49,997 nucleotides of DNA from Actinomycetota bacterium. Its GTDB lineage: Bacteria; Actinomycetota; Actinomycetes; Actinomycetales; Kineosporiaceae. The DNA is taken from positions 1-49,997 of the forward strand of contig JAUPKQ010000119.1 of NCBI GenBank assembly GCA_030837345.1, in the 5' to 3' direction. The stretch's first letter is position 1. Each line of letters starts with the position of its first letter. This document shows positions 10,606 to 42,464 of this stretch, piece by piece. The notes under the pieces are model-generated. The model worked only from the letters and a program-made list of their open reading frames with translations, searched no databases and had not been told where the DNA came from. Both the position numbers and the translations under genes were made by a program.

Positions 10606-11865
10606 ATGAGCGGGAGCATGCGATTGGACGTCCCCGGTGCTGCTCTGGTCCACGTCGGACGGCAGCCGATCCTCGACGCCATGGGCCGGCTGTACGGCTA
10701 TGAGCTCCTTTTCCGTGGCACCGCGGCTGCGACGTCGGCGAACACCGCCGAGACCGGTGAGGAGGCCGACGCGGCGACGACCGCCACGATCTTGTCCGCT
10801 TTCTCCGAGTTCGGCAGTCAGCTCCTCGCCGGGCGGCTCGGCTTCGTCAACCTGACCAGGGCGTTCCTCGTCGGAGAGCTGCCGGTGCCCTTCCCGCCGA
10901 GCACGGGGGTGCTGGAGGTCCTGGAGACGATCGAGATCGACGACGAGGTCGTCGCCGGGGCGGCCAAACGGGTCGCGGAGGGTCACCGGCTGGCCCTGGA
11001 CGACTTCGTCTGGCACGAGCGGTTCGAGCCCTTGCTGTCACTCGCCGACATCGTCAAGGTCGACGTCCTGGCGATGACGTGGCCCGAGGTGATCGAGACC
11101 GTCGAGCGGTGCAAGGGGTTCGGTGTCCGGTTCCTCGCCGAGCGCGTCGAGGACGCGGCGATGCTCGAACGCTGCCGTCAGATGGGTTTCCAGTTCTTCC
11201 AGGGCTACCACCTCGGGCGGCCGCAGACCCTGTCGATGGAGCGGATCGGGCCCGGTCAGGCCGTCGCCCTCCAACTGCTGAGCCGGTTGGGGGACCCGCA
11301 GGTCACAGCCTCGGACGTCGAGCAGGTGCTCCGCACCGACCCCGCCCTCAGCGTCCGCCTGCTGAAGATCGCGAACTCCGCCCACAACGGCCAGCGCCGC
11401 CTGTCGTCGATCAAGGACGCCGTCGTGCTCGTCGGGCTCGCCCGGCTGCGGGCGTGGATGGTCCTCATCGCGACCGAGGGCTCCGCCGGCACACGTGAGG
11501 AGGTGAACGCGGCCCTGATCCGGGCACGGACCTGCGAGCTCGCCGCCCCCGCCGTCGGCGGTGGTGTGCGGCCGGACAGCGCGTTCACCCTCGGTCTGCT
11601 CCACGGCGTCGCGGACGCCCTCGGCCTGCCGATGCAGGAGTTCGTCGGCGGGCTGTCCGCGCTCTCGGAGGATCTGCGGGCTGCCCTGCTCGGGGAGCCG
11701 GGGCCGCTGCGGGCCGTCCTGGACGCCGTCCTCTACTACGAGCGCGGTGACCTGACGGCCCCCCAGAACATCGCCGTCCCGGCGGGAGGGCTCGCCGGGG
11801 CCTACCTGGAGGCTCTCGCCTGGACGACCCACACGCTGGCGTCGCTCACGGGCGATCGTTCCTGA
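10606..11865 (+). CDS. EAL-HDOD signalling protein
   Basis: A 419-residue protein with a degenerate EAL domain (about residues 10-200; VGRQPILDAMGRLYGYELL opens it, with YELL in place of a catalytic EAL signature) and an HDOD domain (about 210-400; DPALSVRLLKIANSAHNG is characteristic). Proteins of this layout are usually not active c-di-GMP phosphodiesterases and act as regulatory or protein-binding modules. GGAG about 9 nt before the ATG supports the start. The coding end overlaps the 3' end of the convergent feoC gene by 20 nt. Two competing hairpins precede the gene. A PAS-GGDEF cyclase is encoded elsewhere in the window, so c-di-GMP signalling is present in the cell. Confidence 0.9.
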   Translation: MSGSMRLDVPGAALVHVGRQPILDAMGRLYGYELLFRGTAAATSANTAETGEEADAATTATILSAFSEFGSQLLAGRLGFVNLTRAFLVGELPVPFPPSTGVLEVLETIEIDDEVVAGAAKRVAEGHRLALDDFVWHERFEPLLSLADIVKVDVLAMTWPEVIETVERCKGFGVRFLAERVEDAAMLERCRQMGFQFFQGYHLGRPQTLSMERIGPGQAVALQLLSRLGDPQVTASDVEQVLRTDPALSVRLLKIANSAHNGQRRLSSIKDAVVLVGLARLRAWMVLIATEGSAGTREEVNAALIRARTCELAAPAVGGGVRPDSAFTLGLLHGVADALGLPMQEFVGGLSALSEDLRAALLGEPGPLRAVLDAVLYYERGDLTAPQNIAVPAGGLAGAYLEALAWTTHTLASLTGDRS

Positions 11866-33988: not shown

Positions 33989-35326
33989 ATGGCTGAGGGA
34001 TCCGGTTCAGTCCGGAATGAGCCTCTACTCGTCGATCGGCCCACGGGAACCGTGTGGCACACGATCCGGACCGCCTGCCGACGGCTTTACTCCGTCGAGG
34101 ACGACTTCGTCGGCAGCTTTCGTTCGTCGCTCGTCCAGCTGGTACCCGAACTGCAGCACTCGACCGCGGACGGGGGGCTGTCGATCGGTGAGGGCCTGGC
34201 GCGCGCCGTCCTGTGGGCCGCTCTGACCGACGACCCCCCTGAGACCGTCGAAGCGACGTTCTCGAACCTCGGGGCCGAGTACGGCCACCGGGGGTTCCCG
34301 GAAGACGGGTACCACGGTGCCGGTCATGCGCTCCTGCGTGCGGCCCGCGACAACCAGATCTCGGACTGGACCTCCGAGCTCAGCTCCGGGTGGGTCGCCT
34401 TCTACGGCTGGCTCGCCGCTCATCTCGTCGAAGGAGCGAAGTACGCCCGTCTCGCGGACACCGTCCGCACGGTCCCCACCAGCCGTCTGGAACTGCCCCG
34501 CCATGTGGAGCGGCCCGTGGAGCGGTCCGGATCCGCCGCGAGCCCCCGATCCCCCGCCGGCCCGAGATCCGCCGCCGAGCCCAGATCGGCTGCGAGCCCC
34601 GGATTCGCGGAGCTCACGGGACGTCCGGACCCACCCAGAGACGGCCCGCCACGGCATGTCGAGCTCCCGCACCGCGGCGGACCGGACGCCTCCACGGCCC
34701 CCGGCACCGGGCCGATCGACCTCGATCCACCGTTCGCCACCGGTCCGTTTTCTCCCGGGTCACCCGTGCGAGAAGGGGAGCGGGCCGCACGAGGCGGCCC
34801 GCCGGCCGGGTCCGGAGCGATCGTGCTCCGCCCGGTGCCAGTGACCCGCACCGCGTCCCCGCCCAGCGGCATCCGCACGGCGGGGATCCTGGAACCGGCG
34901 CCCTTCCCCCCCTCTGCCCCCATCCCGGTCCCGCAGCCCAGCCCGGTCCGGCCGCCCACGCCGCCGTCCGGAACTCCCACGTCAAGGCCTCCCGGAACCC
35001 TCGACGAGGTCCTGGACTTCCTGCGCGCCCGGTACTTCGGGGACGACGACAGGGCCCTGACCGCTGTCCTCACCCGTGTCGCGCTGAGAACCGGCGCCGA
35101 TCTCCGGGCTCCCCGTCCAGATCAACGAGCCAACCCCGCCGTCATCGCGAACGTGCTCGCCGTCCTCCAGGTGATGGGGTACGTCGTCCAGACGACGGCG
35201 GGCCCGGACTCACTACCGGTGATCGTCCCGGCCGCGGCCCAGCCCTCCCACCCTTCCCGGTGGTGGAACCGACGCCGGTCGGGGCGAGGATGGAGACGGT
35301 CGCCCGCGCCGGACGCCTACCAGTGA
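33989..35326 (+). CDS. Globin-fold protein with Pro-rich linker and unknown C-terminal domain
   Basis: A 445-residue protein. Residues ~25-150 resemble bacterial sensor globins: an A/B-helix start (VWHTIRTACRRLYSVEDDF), then helices E-F (TVEATFSNLGAEYGHRGFPE), then a G-H region (WTSELSSGWVAFYGWLAAHL). In a gapless comparison with globins of this type the F8 proximal His position is Tyr98, with His100 two residues on, so heme binding is uncertain. Residues ~165-345 are Pro/Ser/Arg-rich. About 345-415 form a second small predicted helical domain (LDEVLDFLRARYFGDDDRAL), not recognised. GGAG 9 nt before the ATG supports the start. A FIST-domain gene follows on the same strand. Confidence 0.65.
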   Translation: MAEGSGSVRNEPLLVDRPTGTVWHTIRTACRRLYSVEDDFVGSFRSSLVQLVPELQHSTADGGLSIGEGLARAVLWAALTDDPPETVEATFSNLGAEYGHRGFPEDGYHGAGHALLRAARDNQISDWTSELSSGWVAFYGWLAAHLVEGAKYARLADTVRTVPTSRLELPRHVERPVERSGSAASPRSPAGPRSAAEPRSAASPGFAELTGRPDPPRDGPPRHVELPHRGGPDASTAPGTGPIDLDPPFATGPFSPGSPVREGERAARGGPPAGSGAIVLRPVPVTRTASPPSGIRTAGILEPAPFPPSAPIPVPQPSPVRPPTPPSGTPTSRPPGTLDEVLDFLRARYFGDDDRALTAVLTRVALRTGADLRAPRPDQRANPAVIANVLAVLQVMGYVVQTTAGPDSLPVIVPAAAQPSHPSRWWNRRRSGRGWRRSPAPDAYQ

Positions 35327-35392
35327 TCCGCCGGTCCGCGACCGGACGCGGCGATTCCCACAACTGAGGCGATGACCAGAAAGGCACAACAG

Positions 35393-36547
35393 GTGAGCAG
35401 AGGCACCGGGACGGCCGTGACGCCCGCGCGAGCCCACTCCTCGGGTCCGGTACGTCAAGCGGTCGGTTCGGTGATCGACAGGCTGGGCCGAGGCCTCGGC
35501 GGCCGGCAGCCCGTCGCCGTCTTGTACTTCGCGTCGAGCGCGTACGACCCCGAGGACATCGTCACGCCCATGGCTGACGCCTTCCCCGACGCGGCGGTGA
35601 TCGGGTGCTCGACGGCGGGCGAGTTCACCGACGCCGTGACCGGGACGGGCGGGATCAGCGCCGTCGCTCTGCCGTCCGGGATTCTCACCGGCGCCCTCGC
35701 CGCCCTCGGCGACCTCGACGGCGATGTCGCCGACGGCACGTGGGCCGCTGTCAGCGAACTGGAGTCGTGTCTTCGGGTATCCCTTCGCGATCTCGATCCC
35801 GCCTGTCACCTGGGCTTCGTCCTGATCGACGGCCTGAGCCGCGCCGAGGAGGAGGTCAACGAGATCCTCGGGAACGCCGCGCCGGTCCTCGACATCGTCG
35901 GCGGTTCGGCCGGTGACGACCTGGCGTTCGACCGCACCTGGGTCGCCGTCGGGCACCAGATCAGCTATCGCGGCATGGCTCTCCTGCTGTGCCAGACGGC
36001 GGTCCCGTTCCACGTGGTGAAAACCTGCTCGTTCGTGCCGACGGGCCGTGTCCTCCGCATCACCGACGCGGACGTCGCGACCCGGACCGTCCGTTCGTTC
36101 GACGGCAGGCCGGCGGCCGACGTCTACGCCGAGGCGGTCGGAGTCACCCGTGACCGGCTGGACGACTCCGTCTGGATGAGCCACCCACTGGGCTTGATGA
36201 TCAACGGTGAGCCGTGGATCCGCAGCCCCCAGACGGTGACGCCCGAGGGCCACATCGTCTTCTACGCCCAGATCTTGCCGGACATGCAGGTTGAGGTGAT
36301 GCGGGCTACCGACATGGTCGCGGACACCCGTGCCGCCGTCCACGACGCCAGGGCAGCCCTCGGCGAGCAGGCGAGCGGCGCTGTCCTGTTCAACTGCATT
36401 CTGCGGCGCCTGGAGATGGACGCCAAACAGATCGGGCGGCCGTTCCTCGAATCCTTCGACAGCCTGCCGCTCGCCGGTTTCCACACCTATGGCGAGAGCT
36501 GGCTCGGCCACGTCAACCAGACCCTGACCGGTGTCGTCTTCGGCTGA
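35393..36547 (+). CDS. FIST-domain sensor protein
   Basis: A 384-residue stand-alone FIST protein: FIST_N (about 35-225; VLYFASSAYDPEDIV, VIGCSTAGEFTD) followed by FIST_C (about 235-375; EAVGVTRD, SHPLGLMINGEPWIRSPQ, FNCILRRL, GFHTYGESWLG). FIST domains are thought to bind small ligands such as amino acids and often sit with signalling proteins. There is no output domain, so it likely passes its signal to a partner. The GTG at 35393 has AAAGG 8 nt upstream; an ATG at 35372 has a ribosome site placed too close. It follows the globin-like gene by 66 nt and may share its transcript. Confidence 0.85.
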   Translation: MSRGTGTAVTPARAHSSGPVRQAVGSVIDRLGRGLGGRQPVAVLYFASSAYDPEDIVTPMADAFPDAAVIGCSTAGEFTDAVTGTGGISAVALPSGILTGALAALGDLDGDVADGTWAAVSELESCLRVSLRDLDPACHLGFVLIDGLSRAEEEVNEILGNAAPVLDIVGGSAGDDLAFDRTWVAVGHQISYRGMALLLCQTAVPFHVVKTCSFVPTGRVLRITDADVATRTVRSFDGRPAADVYAEAVGVTRDRLDDSVWMSHPLGLMINGEPWIRSPQTVTPEGHIVFYAQILPDMQVEVMRATDMVADTRAAVHDARAALGEQASGAVLFNCILRRLEMDAKQIGRPFLESFDSLPLAGFHTYGESWLGHVNQTLTGVVFG

Positions 36548-36559
36548 CGACGGCCGGCG

Positions 36560-37201
36560 TCAGGACAGGCCCGCAGCCTGGGCCGACGAGAGTTCGGTGA
36601 ACGGCGTCGCGTAGCGGAAGACGCCTTTGATCGGGCGGAAGGCGGCGAGCGGACGGATCTGGAAGGCCTGCCCCCAGGAGGGATCGGGAGGCTCGATACC
36701 CAATTCGACAGCCGGGCGGAATCCGAAACGACGGTAATAGGAAGGGTCGCCCAGCAACCCGACGAACGGTTCACCGAGGCCGTCGGCCATCCCGAGGACA
36801 GCGTGCATCAGCGCCTGTCCGACGCCTTGCCTCTGGCGGTCCGGCCGCACGGCCAGCGGGCCGAGAGCGAGGCCCGGCTCACCGTCGAGATGCGCCCGTG
36901 AACACGTGACGAAACCGACGACCATGTCGTCGTCCCGGCTCCCCCGCAGGGGGGAAACAGGAGCGGGAAGGACCTCCCCCACCGGGTTCTCGTCATCGAA
37001 CCCGAAGTCGTCACCGAAGTCGTCACCGGGGTCGATCGCCACCAAGGACAGTTGCGGTAGCCAGCCGGGGTCGGCCCGGAGCTCCTCCAGCAACGTGACC
37101 TCCACCGGGAGCCCATCGGCCGATCCTCGCCCCGCGAAGGCCGCGGTCACCACCGCCCTGATCCGTACGGCGTCCTGCTCGCGTTCCCTCCGGATGAGCA
37201 C
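36560..37201 (-). CDS. GNAT-family N-acetyltransferase
   Basis: A 213-residue acetyl-CoA-dependent transferase. The acetyl-CoA-binding motif A is seen as LALGPLAVRPDRQRQGVGQAL and the later FVGLLGDPSYYRRFGFRPA is typical of the YhbS-like subgroup. An acidic, repeat-like insert (DPGDDFGDDFGFDDENPVG) sits between the first strands, unlike most homologues. The GTG at 37201 is chosen because AAGGA lies 8-9 nt upstream and the fold starts there (LIRREREQDAVRI); the frame is open for 34 more codons. It converges on the FIST gene and lies downstream of the GGDEF gene. Confidence 0.85.
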   Translation of the reverse strand: MLIRREREQDAVRIRAVVTAAFAGRGSADGLPVEVTLLEELRADPGWLPQLSLVAIDPGDDFGDDFGFDDENPVGEVLPAPVSPLRGSRDDDMVVGFVTCSRAHLDGEPGLALGPLAVRPDRQRQGVGQALMHAVLGMADGLGEPFVGLLGDPSYYRRFGFRPAVELGIEPPDPSWGQAFQIRPLAAFRPIKGVFRYATPFTELSSAQAAGLS

Positions 37202-37315
37202 GGTGCCGATCCTTGACTCAATGAAGTCGGATAGCAACCCCTTGCACCGTTTTCGTCCGATGAACCCAAGAATTTCGAAGGGTGGGTGGATTGTCGGGTT
37301 CAAGTGGCCCTGGCG

Positions 37316-38260
37316 TCAGACGAGCACAGTCGCCGAATCTCCGGTCACGGACCGGCGACCGACAGTGACCTGGTTCCGCCCCTGCTCCTTGCTGAGGTAC
37401 AGCTGGGCATCCGCGCGGGTGCAGAGCCACTCCGCGGTGTCACCAGCTTCGACGAGCGCCCCTCCGACCGAGATGGCGAGCGTGACGGCCTCGTCCTCGG
37501 CGACGTCCACCCCGGAACTGCTCACCAGGAACCGGGCACGTTCCCCGACCCGGCGCAGCTCGTCGTCCGTCTCGGCCCGGACCAGGGCGACGAACTCGTC
37601 ACCGCCGAAGCGCCCGACGACGTCCGAACCCCGCATGCTGGACTGCAAGCTTGAGGCGACCACGCGCAGGGCCGCGTCCCCCCGCTCATGCCCGACACTA
37701 TCGTTGATCTTCTTGAAATGATCCAGATCGATCATCAGCAGCCCGAAACGGTGTCCGTAGCGGCCCCACTCCGACAGCCAGTTCGCGAGAGTGCTGTCGA
37801 AGTGCCGCCGATTGCCCACCCCGGTCAGGGGATCAGTCAGGGCCAATCGTTCCAGTTCAACGAGCTTGAGGTGGGCGGCAATCCACTCGTCGTCCCTCCG
37901 GAAGATCTCGGTGGCCCCGACGATGTTCCCCTCGTCGTCCCTCAACGCGCTCGACTGGACGACGACCGGTAGGCGATGCCCCTCCCTGTGGTGGAGGTAG
38001 AAGTGGTAGCTGCGCCCTTCGCCGTCCGCGAGCGTCTCCTTGAGCGGGCAGTTCACCCCGCACATGCGGACGCCCGTCTCGTCGATGTGGCGCAGGCGGT
38101 TGTCGAAGCAGTGGTGACCGACCATCTCCTCGGGCGAGTACCCGGAGATCTCCTGTGCGCCCGCGTTCCAGAAGGTGACCCGCCGATCGGGGTCGACGAA
38201 GTACACCCCGTCACTGATGCAGTCCAACATCTCGCGGTAGTGATCCACTTTGTCGGGCAT
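37316..38260 (-). CDS. PAS-GGDEF diguanylate cyclase
   Basis: A 314-residue c-di-GMP synthase with an intact active site: GGDEF at 219-223 and the inhibitory RxxD (Arg210-Asp213) five residues before it. The N-terminal PAS domain (about 8-125) has a Cys cluster (Cys51, Cys67, Cys71; MCGVNCPL), a pattern seen in other PAS-GGDEF proteins and perhaps binding metal or reporting redox state. There is no membrane segment, so it senses a cytoplasmic cue. GGAGG 9 nt before the ATG supports the start. The EAL-HDOD protein in this window looks inactive as a phosphodiesterase. Confidence 0.93.
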   Translation of the reverse strand: MPDKVDHYREMLDCISDGVYFVDPDRRVTFWNAGAQEISGYSPEEMVGHHCFDNRLRHIDETGVRMCGVNCPLKETLADGEGRSYHFYLHHREGHRLPVVVQSSALRDDEGNIVGATEIFRRDDEWIAAHLKLVELERLALTDPLTGVGNRRHFDSTLANWLSEWGRYGHRFGLLMIDLDHFKKINDSVGHERGDAALRVVASSLQSSMRGSDVVGRFGGDEFVALVRAETDDELRRVGERARFLVSSSGVDVAEDEAVTLAISVGGALVEAGDTAEWLCTRADAQLYLSKEQGRNQVTVGRRSVTGDSATVLV

Positions 38261-40234: not shown

Positions 40235-40334
40235 TCAAAGAATGGCGAAAGCCGAGACACTAGGTCGATGACATGATCTAGGGGACAGGGCGAGTAGGTC
40301 GCGTGCGGGTGTGGGGGCCTGGGGGGGAGTGCTA

Positions 40335-42464
40335 GTGCAGGGTTCGACGGGTGCTCAGGTGGGCCGGGACGTGCGCGTCAAGTCCTTGGTGTCTCGTGGT
40401 GAGGGGCAGCTCGTCGTCGGGGGCATTCCTGGTCAGGCTGCTGGCTTCATCGATCGGGATCAGGTCGAGGAGGTGGAACGGGCGCTCATCGACGCCGGGA
40501 CGGTTTTGGTGTGCGCGGTGGCCGGATGTCGTGGGGTGGGCAAGACACAGGTTGCCGCTGCGGTGGCTCGCTCGGCGGTGGCGCGGGGGTGGGGGTTGGT
40601 GGCGTGGGTGTCCGGCGAGACCCGGGACGCTCTCCTGGCCGGGTTGGCGCTCGTCACGGAGGGACTCGGGGTGGCCGATCCCGAGCGTGACGCGGTGTGG
40701 TCGGCTACTCGGCTGCGTGCGGAGCTGCAGTCGCGTCAGGCGGAGGGTCTGCTGGTCGTCGACAATGCCATCGATCCGGAGGCCTTGACGGAGTGGTTGC
40801 CGGCCACGGGCGGGACCCGGGTCGTGGTGACCTCCACGGACCGGAACATCATCAGCCGGGGGAGCCGTGTCGATGTCGGCGTCTTCACCCGGCCCGAGTC
40901 GATCCGGTATCTGCAGGGCCAGGCCGGGCGTGACGACCCCGCCGGTGTCGAACTGGTGGCCCGGGCTGTCGAGGATTCTCCTCTGGGGTTGAGTCAGGCG
41001 GCTGCCGTGTTGCGGACCAGGCCGGGCCTGACCTGCGCGGAGCTGGCCCGCCGGATCGATGAGGAACCCCTGGCCCGCAGCCTGCCTCGGGAGAAGGGCT
41101 GCGACTATCCGAAGGGCGTGGCGGAGGCCATCCTGCAGGCTGTCGATCTGGTGATCGGTCCGGACGCGACTCCCGAGACCGACCCCACGTTCCTGGAACG
41201 GGTTCTGTTGACCGTCGCGGTCCTGTCTCCTACCGGCGTTTCGCTCGACCTGCTCGTGCACATCCTTGCCCCCGGTGAAGAGGACCTGGACTCGGAACGC
41301 CGCCGAGTGGAGGACGCGCTGGCCGTGCCGGTCGGTGCCTCGCTGCTGGAGCGGAGCGAGGACGGGACCGCCGTTCTGATGCACCGCCTGATTGCCCACG
41401 CCCTCAGAGACCGATCGGGACCATATCTTGGTGAGCTACTGGTTGAGATTGGTGAACGGCTCGGCGACCTCATCCCCGGCGAACCTCACGCATGGCAACA
41501 GCAGACCGGCGTCGCCCCCAGCGCTGAGCACATCGTCCACCTCTGGACCGTCGCGGTGAACGCCCCGAGCCTGATGGATCGCGAAGGCATTGTCGAACGC
41601 CTGGTTCCCGTTCAGCGGCGAGCCATCCAGCACCTCATCGATACGGCGGGCCTGCGACGCGCCACCGCCATCTCAGCCCGAACGCTCTCCGACATCGAGC
41701 GGGTGTTGGGTGCCGATCACCCCGATACCTTTGCCTCGAGGGACGACCTCGCCGACGCCTACGAGGCGGCGGACGACGTGGAGCGGGCGATCTCGCTGTA
41801 CGAGGCCATCCTGGCTGATCGGCAGCGAGTGCTAGGTGCCGATCATCCCGACACCTTCACCTCGCGGGACAACCTCGCCCACGTCTACATGAGGGTGGGG
41901 GATCCGGGACGGGCGATCCCGATGCACGAGGCCACCCTCGCTGATCGGCAGCGAGTGCTAGGTGCCGATCATCCCGACACCTTCACCTCACGGGACAACC
42001 TCGCCGGCGCCTACAGTTTGGCGGGGGATCTGGGGCAGGCGATCCCGCTGTACGAGGCCATCATCGTTGATCGTCAGCGGGTGTTGGGTGCCGATCACCA
42101 CGACACCTTCGCCTCGCGGAGAGACCTCGTCGACGCCTGCGAGGACGCGGGGGATCTGGAGCGGGTGATCCTGCTGTGCGAGGCCGCTCTCACCGATACC
42201 GAGCGGGTGCTGGGCGTGAACCATCTCGACGCCTACGGCTGGAGGTACATCCTCATCGAAGCCTACGAGTCGTCGGGGGTCCCGGGGCGGGCGATCCCGC
42301 TGCGCGAGGCCAATCTCGCGTTCCTGCAGCGGGTGCTGGGTGCCGATCATCCCGACACCTTCACCTCGCGGGACAACCTCGCCGGCGCCTACGAGGCGGC
42401 GGAGCAAGCTCATGAGCGCCCGCTCGCAAGTAGCGAAGAAATCCGAGGTCAGGAGTTGCACTAG
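40335..42464 (+). CDS. STAND NTPase (NB-ARC-like) with C-terminal TPR repeats
   Basis: A 709-residue protein. An N-terminal ~45-residue stretch is followed by a STAND NTPase module: Walker A GCRGVGKT (Lys70), Walker B GLLVVDNA (Asp143) and a sensor strand RVVVTSTDRN. A helical winged region follows, then five and a half TPR repeats of exactly 42 residues (from about 456; RVLGADHPDTFTSRDNLA is the unit opening). Such proteins act as ligand-triggered switches; in bacteria some defend against phage, others regulate. No effector domain is seen at the N-terminus. The last repeat stops short, as if truncated. The GTG at 40335 has GGAG 5 nt upstream; a GTG at 40311 is an alternative. Confidence 0.85.
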   Translation: MQGSTGAQVGRDVRVKSLVSRGEGQLVVGGIPGQAAGFIDRDQVEEVERALIDAGTVLVCAVAGCRGVGKTQVAAAVARSAVARGWGLVAWVSGETRDALLAGLALVTEGLGVADPERDAVWSATRLRAELQSRQAEGLLVVDNAIDPEALTEWLPATGGTRVVVTSTDRNIISRGSRVDVGVFTRPESIRYLQGQAGRDDPAGVELVARAVEDSPLGLSQAAAVLRTRPGLTCAELARRIDEEPLARSLPREKGCDYPKGVAEAILQAVDLVIGPDATPETDPTFLERVLLTVAVLSPTGVSLDLLVHILAPGEEDLDSERRRVEDALAVPVGASLLERSEDGTAVLMHRLIAHALRDRSGPYLGELLVEIGERLGDLIPGEPHAWQQQTGVAPSAEHIVHLWTVAVNAPSLMDREGIVERLVPVQRRAIQHLIDTAGLRRATAISARTLSDIERVLGADHPDTFASRDDLADAYEAADDVERAISLYEAILADRQRVLGADHPDTFTSRDNLAHVYMRVGDPGRAIPMHEATLADRQRVLGADHPDTFTSRDNLAGAYSLAGDLGQAIPLYEAIIVDRQRVLGADHHDTFASRRDLVDACEDAGDLERVILLCEAALTDTERVLGVNHLDAYGWRYILIEAYESSGVPGRAIPLREANLAFLQRVLGADHPDTFTSRDNLAGAYEAAEQAHERPLASSEEIRGQELH
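41700..42390 (+). repeat. 126-bp tandem TPR-coding repeats
   Basis: Five full units and one partial, each 126 bp (42 codons). 41817-41880 and 41943-42006 differ at one of 64 positions, and the last partial unit is again close to these two although units 4 and 5 have diverged. This pattern points to recent unequal crossover or gene conversion within the gene. Confidence 0.85.

What the first reader, a model, noticed from the sequence alone, without database searches (positions are those of the whole stretch)
33989..38260. Globin-like + FIST + PAS-GGDEF neighbourhood: candidate sensory module
A globin-fold protein with a separate C-terminal domain and a stand-alone FIST sensor (same strand, 66 nt apart) sit beside a PAS-GGDEF cyclase with an intact active and inhibitory site. 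FIST and globin proteins lack output domains here, while the cyclase has output but only a PAS input. A joint ligand or redox sensing system feeding c-di-GMP is plausible and, to my knowledge, not described in this form.
Basis: inference. Interest (0 to 1): 0.55.

Follow-up and report, generated by a model that had tools for sequence, protein, structure and literature searches.

The report
Globin-fused partner of NosP-like sensor
Two neighbouring genes probably make a two-part bacterial sensor, a NosP-like FIST protein plus a small helper domain that is here welded to a globin which seems to have lost its heme ligand, while the neighbouring c-di-GMP enzyme looks like a chance neighbour.

Summary
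A GNAT gene (36560-37303, minus) lies between FIST and the cyclase, which is on the opposite strand. The globin fold is confirmed by model (VHb Z 17.1), but its proximal-His position is Tyr98. The separate C-terminal domain is the key part: three helices, about 65 residues, no Pfam, NCBIfam or PHROGs family. I found 10 copies in 6 genomes, some as stand-alone 70-89 aa genes; in 8 of 8 with a visible 3' neighbour the next gene is a NosP-like FIST. In a Streptomyces the fusion gene overlaps FIST (ATGA). In two Bacillaceae plasmids a 65-68 aa gene sits before the sister FISTs. A GGDEF gene lies near 1 of 8 such FISTs (this window) against 14 of 16 FISTs of another clade, so the cyclase link is unsupported here. 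Best reading: a split NosP-type sensor (FIST plus dedicated partner domain) with a degenerate globin added. A faint likeness of the partner domain to the H-NOX N-terminal subdomain is the boldest lead.

The parts
33989..35326 (+). globin-linker-partner-domain fusion gene (445 aa)
   Evidence: ORF; fold; alignment with Streptomyces and Kineosporia fusions
34046..34471 (+). globin-fold domain, residues 20-161; F8 position Tyr98, E7 position Ile66, B10 position Arg45
34472..34978 (+). proline-rich, low-confidence (probably disordered) linker
   Evidence: block-mean pLDDT mostly 36-58
34991..35185 (+). three-helix FIST-partner domain (motif TRVALRTG..LR.PRPDQ)
   Evidence: profile match 2.0e-30
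35372..36547 (+). NosP-like FIST/FIST_C protein (391 aa)
36560..37303 (-). GNAT acetyltransferase gene between FIST and the cyclase; not part of the unit
   Evidence: Acetyltransf_7 2.3e-09
37316..38260 (-). PAS-GGDEF diguanylate cyclase; probably an incidental neighbour

Best explanation
The unit is a two-gene operon for a split sensor. The FIST protein belongs to a clade related to, but separate from, the nitric-oxide sensor NosP and is the ligand-binding part (ligand inferred: heme/NO or a similar small molecule). The roughly 65-residue three-helix domain is its dedicated partner, either made alone or fused, as here, through a disordered linker to a globin-fold domain. Binding of ligand by FIST would change its grip on the partner domain and so pass the signal to an output protein encoded elsewhere; the globin, without its usual heme ligands here, would act as scaffold or second input. 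Shown: gene order, conservation, predicted folds and lost globin ligands. Inferred: co-transcription, physical interaction, ligand and signal path. Output unknown; the cyclase next door is not the default candidate.
For: Partner domain: 10 copies in 6 genomes (9 in the own family, counting the frameshifted G007:C14 copy once; 1 in Streptomyces sp. NBC_01669). Of these, 8 have a visible 3' neighbour and in 8 of 8 it is a same-strand FIST with a gap of -4 to 86 nt; in Streptomyces stop and start overlap as ATGA. The fusion is conserved: globin 42%, partner domain 65% and FIST 61% identity between window and Streptomyces. The FIST tree groups all 8 module FISTs (100/100), sister to two Bacillaceae FISTs (97/96) that carry a 65-68 aa gene 12-20 nt upstream in the same place. 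NosP model match 5e-68 over most of the protein.
Against: The NosP equivalog cutoff is not met (229.8 of 450 bits). No heme ligand in FIST could be tested. Homology of the Bacillaceae small proteins to the partner domain is weak by sequence (hmmsearch E 0.011 against two targets; hhalign P 0.018-0.05). The module is rare: own genome only among 394 class genomes and, leaving out one weak 27-column match, among 396 phylum genomes. No interaction data exist.
Confidence: 0.55

Rival explanations
1. One reading: globin and FIST act on the adjacent PAS-GGDEF cyclase as one c-di-GMP sensory module.
For: All three genes lie within 4.3 kb. The other 3 FIST genes of this genome each stand directly next to a co-directional GGDEF gene. 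NosP systems elsewhere feed c-di-GMP (passages). Treponema has GGDEF, FIST and MCP genes together.
Against: Opposite strand with a GNAT gene between. GGDEF near only 1 of 8 FISTs of this clade, against 14 of 16 in the other clade (Fisher 0.0007, or 0.035 after collapsing close relatives). Expected by chance 0.048 times. In the Streptomyces genome the nearest listed GGDEF is about 240 kb away.
Confidence: 0.12
2. The pair does control c-di-GMP, but through another of the cyclases or a kinase encoded elsewhere in the genome.
For: 45 GGDEF domains in the genome; FIST to c-di-GMP coupling is common in the family and in NosP systems.
Against: No GGDEF gene keeps company with this FIST clade in the other fetched loci, and no kinase was recognised beside it, though not every neighbour was scanned. 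In two related Bacillaceae loci and in Treponema a nearby signalling gene is a chemotaxis receptor. The Streptomyces genome has only 8 GGDEF domains.
Confidence: 0.2
3. The globin is an NO- or O2-handling enzyme (NO dioxygenase type) and FIST merely reports NO.
For: The Streptomyces copy keeps His at F8 and Tyr at B10. Related long globins in Kineosporia-type genomes are co-encoded with NO synthase.
Against: In the window F8 is Tyr98, B10 Arg45 and E7 Ile66; the Kineosporia copies have Leu at F8. There is no reductase domain.
Confidence: 0.08
4. Unrelated genes that are neighbours by chance.
For: The pair is found in few genomes.
Against: 8 of 8 partner-domain copies with a visible 3' neighbour precede FIST, across two bacterial families and in fused and unfused form.
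Confidence: 0.02

Closest known systems
NosP (FIST nitric-oxide sensor; NCBIfam NF041558; NosP-NahK and NosP-NosK systems)
   Same: Same FIST/FIST_C architecture and long match to the NosP model (5e-68); solo sensor without output domain
   Different: Half the curated cutoff score; separate clade from Azospirillum and Sphingobium NosP; no NahK-type kinase next door; has a dedicated small partner domain
Globin-coupled sensors, including HGbRL (globin fused to Roadblock/LC7, PDB 3wfw)
   Same: N-terminal globin joined to a second domain; 3wfw is among the weak phmmer matches
   Different: Partner domain is three helices with no Roadblock match; proximal His lost in the window; no output domain
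FIST-GGDEF(-EAL) gene pairs of the same bacterial family
   Same: FIST protein encoded near GGDEF
   Different: Different FIST clade, directly adjacent and mostly co-directional
H-NOX N-terminal helical subdomain
   Same: Partner-domain model aligns to H-NOX residues 1-66 in several entries (Z up to 4.6); profile-profile score 18.6 beats 60 shuffles and all but the self window of 83 control windows
   Different: No H-NOX heme domain follows; Z is below the noise limit and ABC ATPase fragments score as high; no Pfam HNOB hit

Membership tests
FIST domain proteins (PF08495/PF10442) | FIST N and FIST C domains over the gathering score | tested here: met
   114.8 and 78.5 bits against cutoffs 23.2 and 28.5
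NosP (NF041558) | Curated equivalog score of 450 bits | tested here: not met
   229.8 bits; Azospirillum NosP 499.9
NosP (NF041558) | Encoded with a NahK/NosK-type histidine kinase | tested here: not met
   No kinase next to the window FIST; NahK/ErcS follows FIST in L118 and L121
NosP (NF041558) | Binds heme and NO | not testable with these tools
   No relative in the PDB sequence search; heme ligand not established here
Globin fold | 3-over-3 helical globin fold | tested here: met
   Predicted model: Z 17.1, rmsd 2.3 over 141 residues to 3tm3
Heme-binding globin | Proximal His at F8 | tested here: not met
   Tyr98 aligns with His85 of 1cqx without gaps; Leu in Kineosporia, His in Streptomyces
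Globin-coupled sensor | Globin fused to an output domain (GGDEF, kinase, MCP) | tested here: not met
   No Pfam or NCBIfam domain over cutoff in the C-terminal part
Flavohemoglobin / NO dioxygenase | C-terminal FAD/NAD reductase domain | tested here: not met
H-NOX (partner domain as N-terminal subdomain) | Three-helix N-terminal subdomain fold and sequence | tested here: inconclusive
Diguanylate cyclase | GGDEF motif and RxxD inhibitory site | tested here: met
   RGSDVVGRFGGDEF; GGDEF 2.4e-41

The most novel reading that the evidence does not exclude
The partner domain is a detached relative of the N-terminal helical subdomain of H-NOX, which works together with a NosP-type FIST protein: two nitric-oxide sensor families that are thought to be unrelated would share a signalling part, and a globin has been added as a third NO/O2-type fold.
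Probability: 0.22. Interest if true: 0.78.

Novelty: new variant of a known kind. Interest (0 to 1): 0.48.

Why it matters
How FIST/NosP sensors pass their signal on is poorly known: the review read here says that little is known about substrate binding and signal propagation (PMC8846402, passages). A small dedicated partner that is conserved beside FIST, from stand-alone gene to globin fusion, would give a handle on that step and a minimal two-protein system to purify. The lost heme ligand in a globin retained next to a presumed heme sensor is also a neat case for asking what a heme-free globin does in signalling.

Tried and rejected
Tried without result: PDB sequence searches with FIST and with the partner domain and with the Bacillaceae small proteins (one gave only a designed repeat protein), with both, gave six short matches, mostly designed proteins. 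Pfam, NCBIfam and PHROGs for the partner domain and the Bacillaceae small proteins. FIST in viral contigs (none) and phages (one weak partial hit). Wider searches for the domain: the Streptomyces genus search hit 217 of 295 genomes, but of the matches listed only the query genome over full length, the others covering the globin part; class 1 of 394 and phylum 2 of 396, the second a 27-column match inside an unrelated ORF. In the own family the profile also gave a weak hit in G003 (E 0.00122), dropped because it lies in a 350-aa frame and G003 has no FIST_C match. Bacillota genomes could not be reached with the genome search, so the Bacillaceae evidence rests on two plasmids.

Rejected: the triad as an operon (strand, GNAT gene, non-conservation); flavohemoglobin (no reductase); Roadblock/LC7 as C-terminal domain (no match). 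Fold matches of the partner domain to ABC ATPase fragments and a dehydratase are within noise. In the H-NOX comparison the actinobacterial profile alone was reached by 1 of 60 shuffles.

Literature: (search listings) showed no paper on a FIST partner domain or a FIST-globin pair in this library; passages were read in PMC12570481 and PMC8846402. Two NosP papers were not held. Recalled only: the helix names B10, E7, F8 for globin positions and what residues they usually carry, and the view that NosP and H-NOX are unrelated families.

Full report
The window is contig C203 of a 4.35 Mb genome in 269 contigs. Its GGDEF motif and RxxD site are intact.

Globin. Pfam does not see it, but phmmer finds flavohemoproteins weakly (1cqx, E 0.022), and the AlphaFold2 model has a confident globin at residues 20-161 that superposes on Vitreoscilla hemoglobin with Z 17.1, rmsd 2.3 over 141 residues, 16% identity. 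The ungapped alignment with 1cqx puts Tyr98 at the proximal-His position. A comparison of nine globins puts Arg45 at B10 and Ile66 at E7. The Kineosporia copies have Leu at F8 but Tyr at B10; the Streptomyces copy has both His F8 and Tyr B10. The window globin therefore probably binds no heme in the usual way, whereas the Streptomyces one may. That is inference.

C-terminal domain. Residues 338-395 form three helices after a long low-confidence linker; a stand-alone relative modelled by itself reaches pLDDT 87.5. Matches to the globin-C and FIST regions in relatives showed this domain, not the globin, to be the steady companion of FIST. It occurs alone as 70-89 aa genes and fused to globin in the window, in Kineosporia sp. 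R_H_3 and in Streptomyces sp. NBC_01669. I count 10 copies in 6 genomes: 9 in 5 of 13 genomes of the own family (with the frameshifted G007:C14 copy as one and the weak G003 hit left out) and 1 in Streptomyces. Two copies end at contig ends (G007:C59 and G009:C493:8846). In the other 8 the next gene on the same strand is a FIST, with gaps of 45, 15, 35, 36, 45, 45, 86 and -4 nt. The -4 is an ATGA overlap in Streptomyces.

FIST. The window FIST matches the NosP model over 356 of its 368 positions (5e-68) but with 229.8 bits against a cutoff of 450. In a tree of 36 FIST proteins the eight FISTs that have the partner domain form one group (100/100). Its sister is a pair of Bacillaceae plasmid FISTs (97/96). 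Proteobacterial NosP and NosP-like proteins form another group, and 16 further FISTs of the own bacterial family form a distant clade (100/100). In both Bacillaceae plasmids a small 'hypothetical' gene of 65 and 68 aa lies 20 and 12 nt upstream of FIST and lines up with the partner domain (T(R/K)..L.. G(V/I) ... DP.V ... L..LG). The sequence evidence for that homology alone is weak; place, size and the FIST tree make it likely.

c-di-GMP. Of the 16 FISTs of the other clade, 14 have a GGDEF gene beside them, 13 of the 14 on the same strand. Of the 8 FISTs with partner domain only the window has one in the fetched flanks. Fisher gives 0.0007, or 0.035 after collapsing close relatives by hand. 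Some flanks are short because of contig ends. The genome has 45 GGDEF domains, so one at this distance is expected 0.048 times: mildly unusual, not compelling. Chemotaxis receptors lie near three related or more distant FIST loci (Rossellomorea, Pontibacillus, Treponema) and a few kb from the G006 locus, so chemotaxis is as good an output guess as c-di-GMP.

H-NOX lead. No solved fold matches the partner domain convincingly (best Foldseek E 0.88). Several H-NOX and soluble guanylate cyclase entries recur, always with their residues 1-66 (Z up to 4.6, rmsd 3.4 over 55), but a dehydratase (Z 5.3) and ABC ATPases (up to 4.7) score the same. As a separate test I built a profile of seven H-NOX N-termini, of the eight actinobacterial H-NOX matches found (one was partial and left out), and compared it with the partner domain plus Bacillaceae proteins: global score 18.6 against 3.0 +/- 2.2 for 60 column shuffles, maximum 9.2. 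Of 83 control windows from other protein families only the partner domain's own window scored higher; the next was 15.7 (an earlier run had 80 windows). The actinobacterial rows alone gave 9.7, reached by 1 of 60 shuffles. This is suggestive only.

NO context. Kineosporia-type genomes encode a longer relative of this globin, with His at F8 and Tyr at B10, just before, and overlapping, an NO synthase oxygenase gene. The window genome and the other module genomes outside that genus that I tested (G005, G007, G009, G483) have no NO synthase hit. Together with the NosP kinship this makes NO a reasonable ligand guess, but nothing here tests it.

Verdict. It is a rare split sensor built on a NosP-like FIST and an undescribed partner domain that has captured a globin; the cyclase is probably a neighbour by chance.

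Noticed in passing
L025 4789-8552 (minus); also L026, L027, L030; L028 9248-11718 probable: Long globin-N proteins in Kineosporia-type genomes are followed by, and mostly overlap by 4 nt, an NO synthase oxygenase gene (PF02898): a globin-NOS operon. In L028 the contig ends inside or soon after the second gene.
   Followed up: partly
L032, L033, L034, L062-L064, L066-L073: Recurrent FIST-GGDEF or FIST-GGDEF-EAL gene pairs in this bacterial family, a different FIST clade from the window's.
   Followed up: partly
L022 11391-12143 and L023 1-405 (Kineosporia sp. R_H_3); L020 and L021 (A_224): Contig ends break inside the globin fusion in both strains; two different partner domains suggest a globin with two partner domains in a row. 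The R_H_3 copy at L023 is frameshifted.
   Followed up: no
L125, L126, L127, L122 (Rhodobacterales and Shinella plasmids): FIST with a response regulator and a PAS-domain protein beside a PQQ-dependent methanol/ethanol dehydrogenase.
   Followed up: no
window 37316-38260: The PAS domain of the cyclase has a cysteine cluster (HHC..., CGVNC) that might bind a metal or sense redox.
   Followed up: no
window 40311-42464: TPR-repeat protein with a sub-threshold NB-ARC/AAA match.
   Followed up: no
window 10606-11865: HDOD protein with a partial, sub-threshold EAL match, another possible c-di-GMP-related protein in the window.
   Followed up: no
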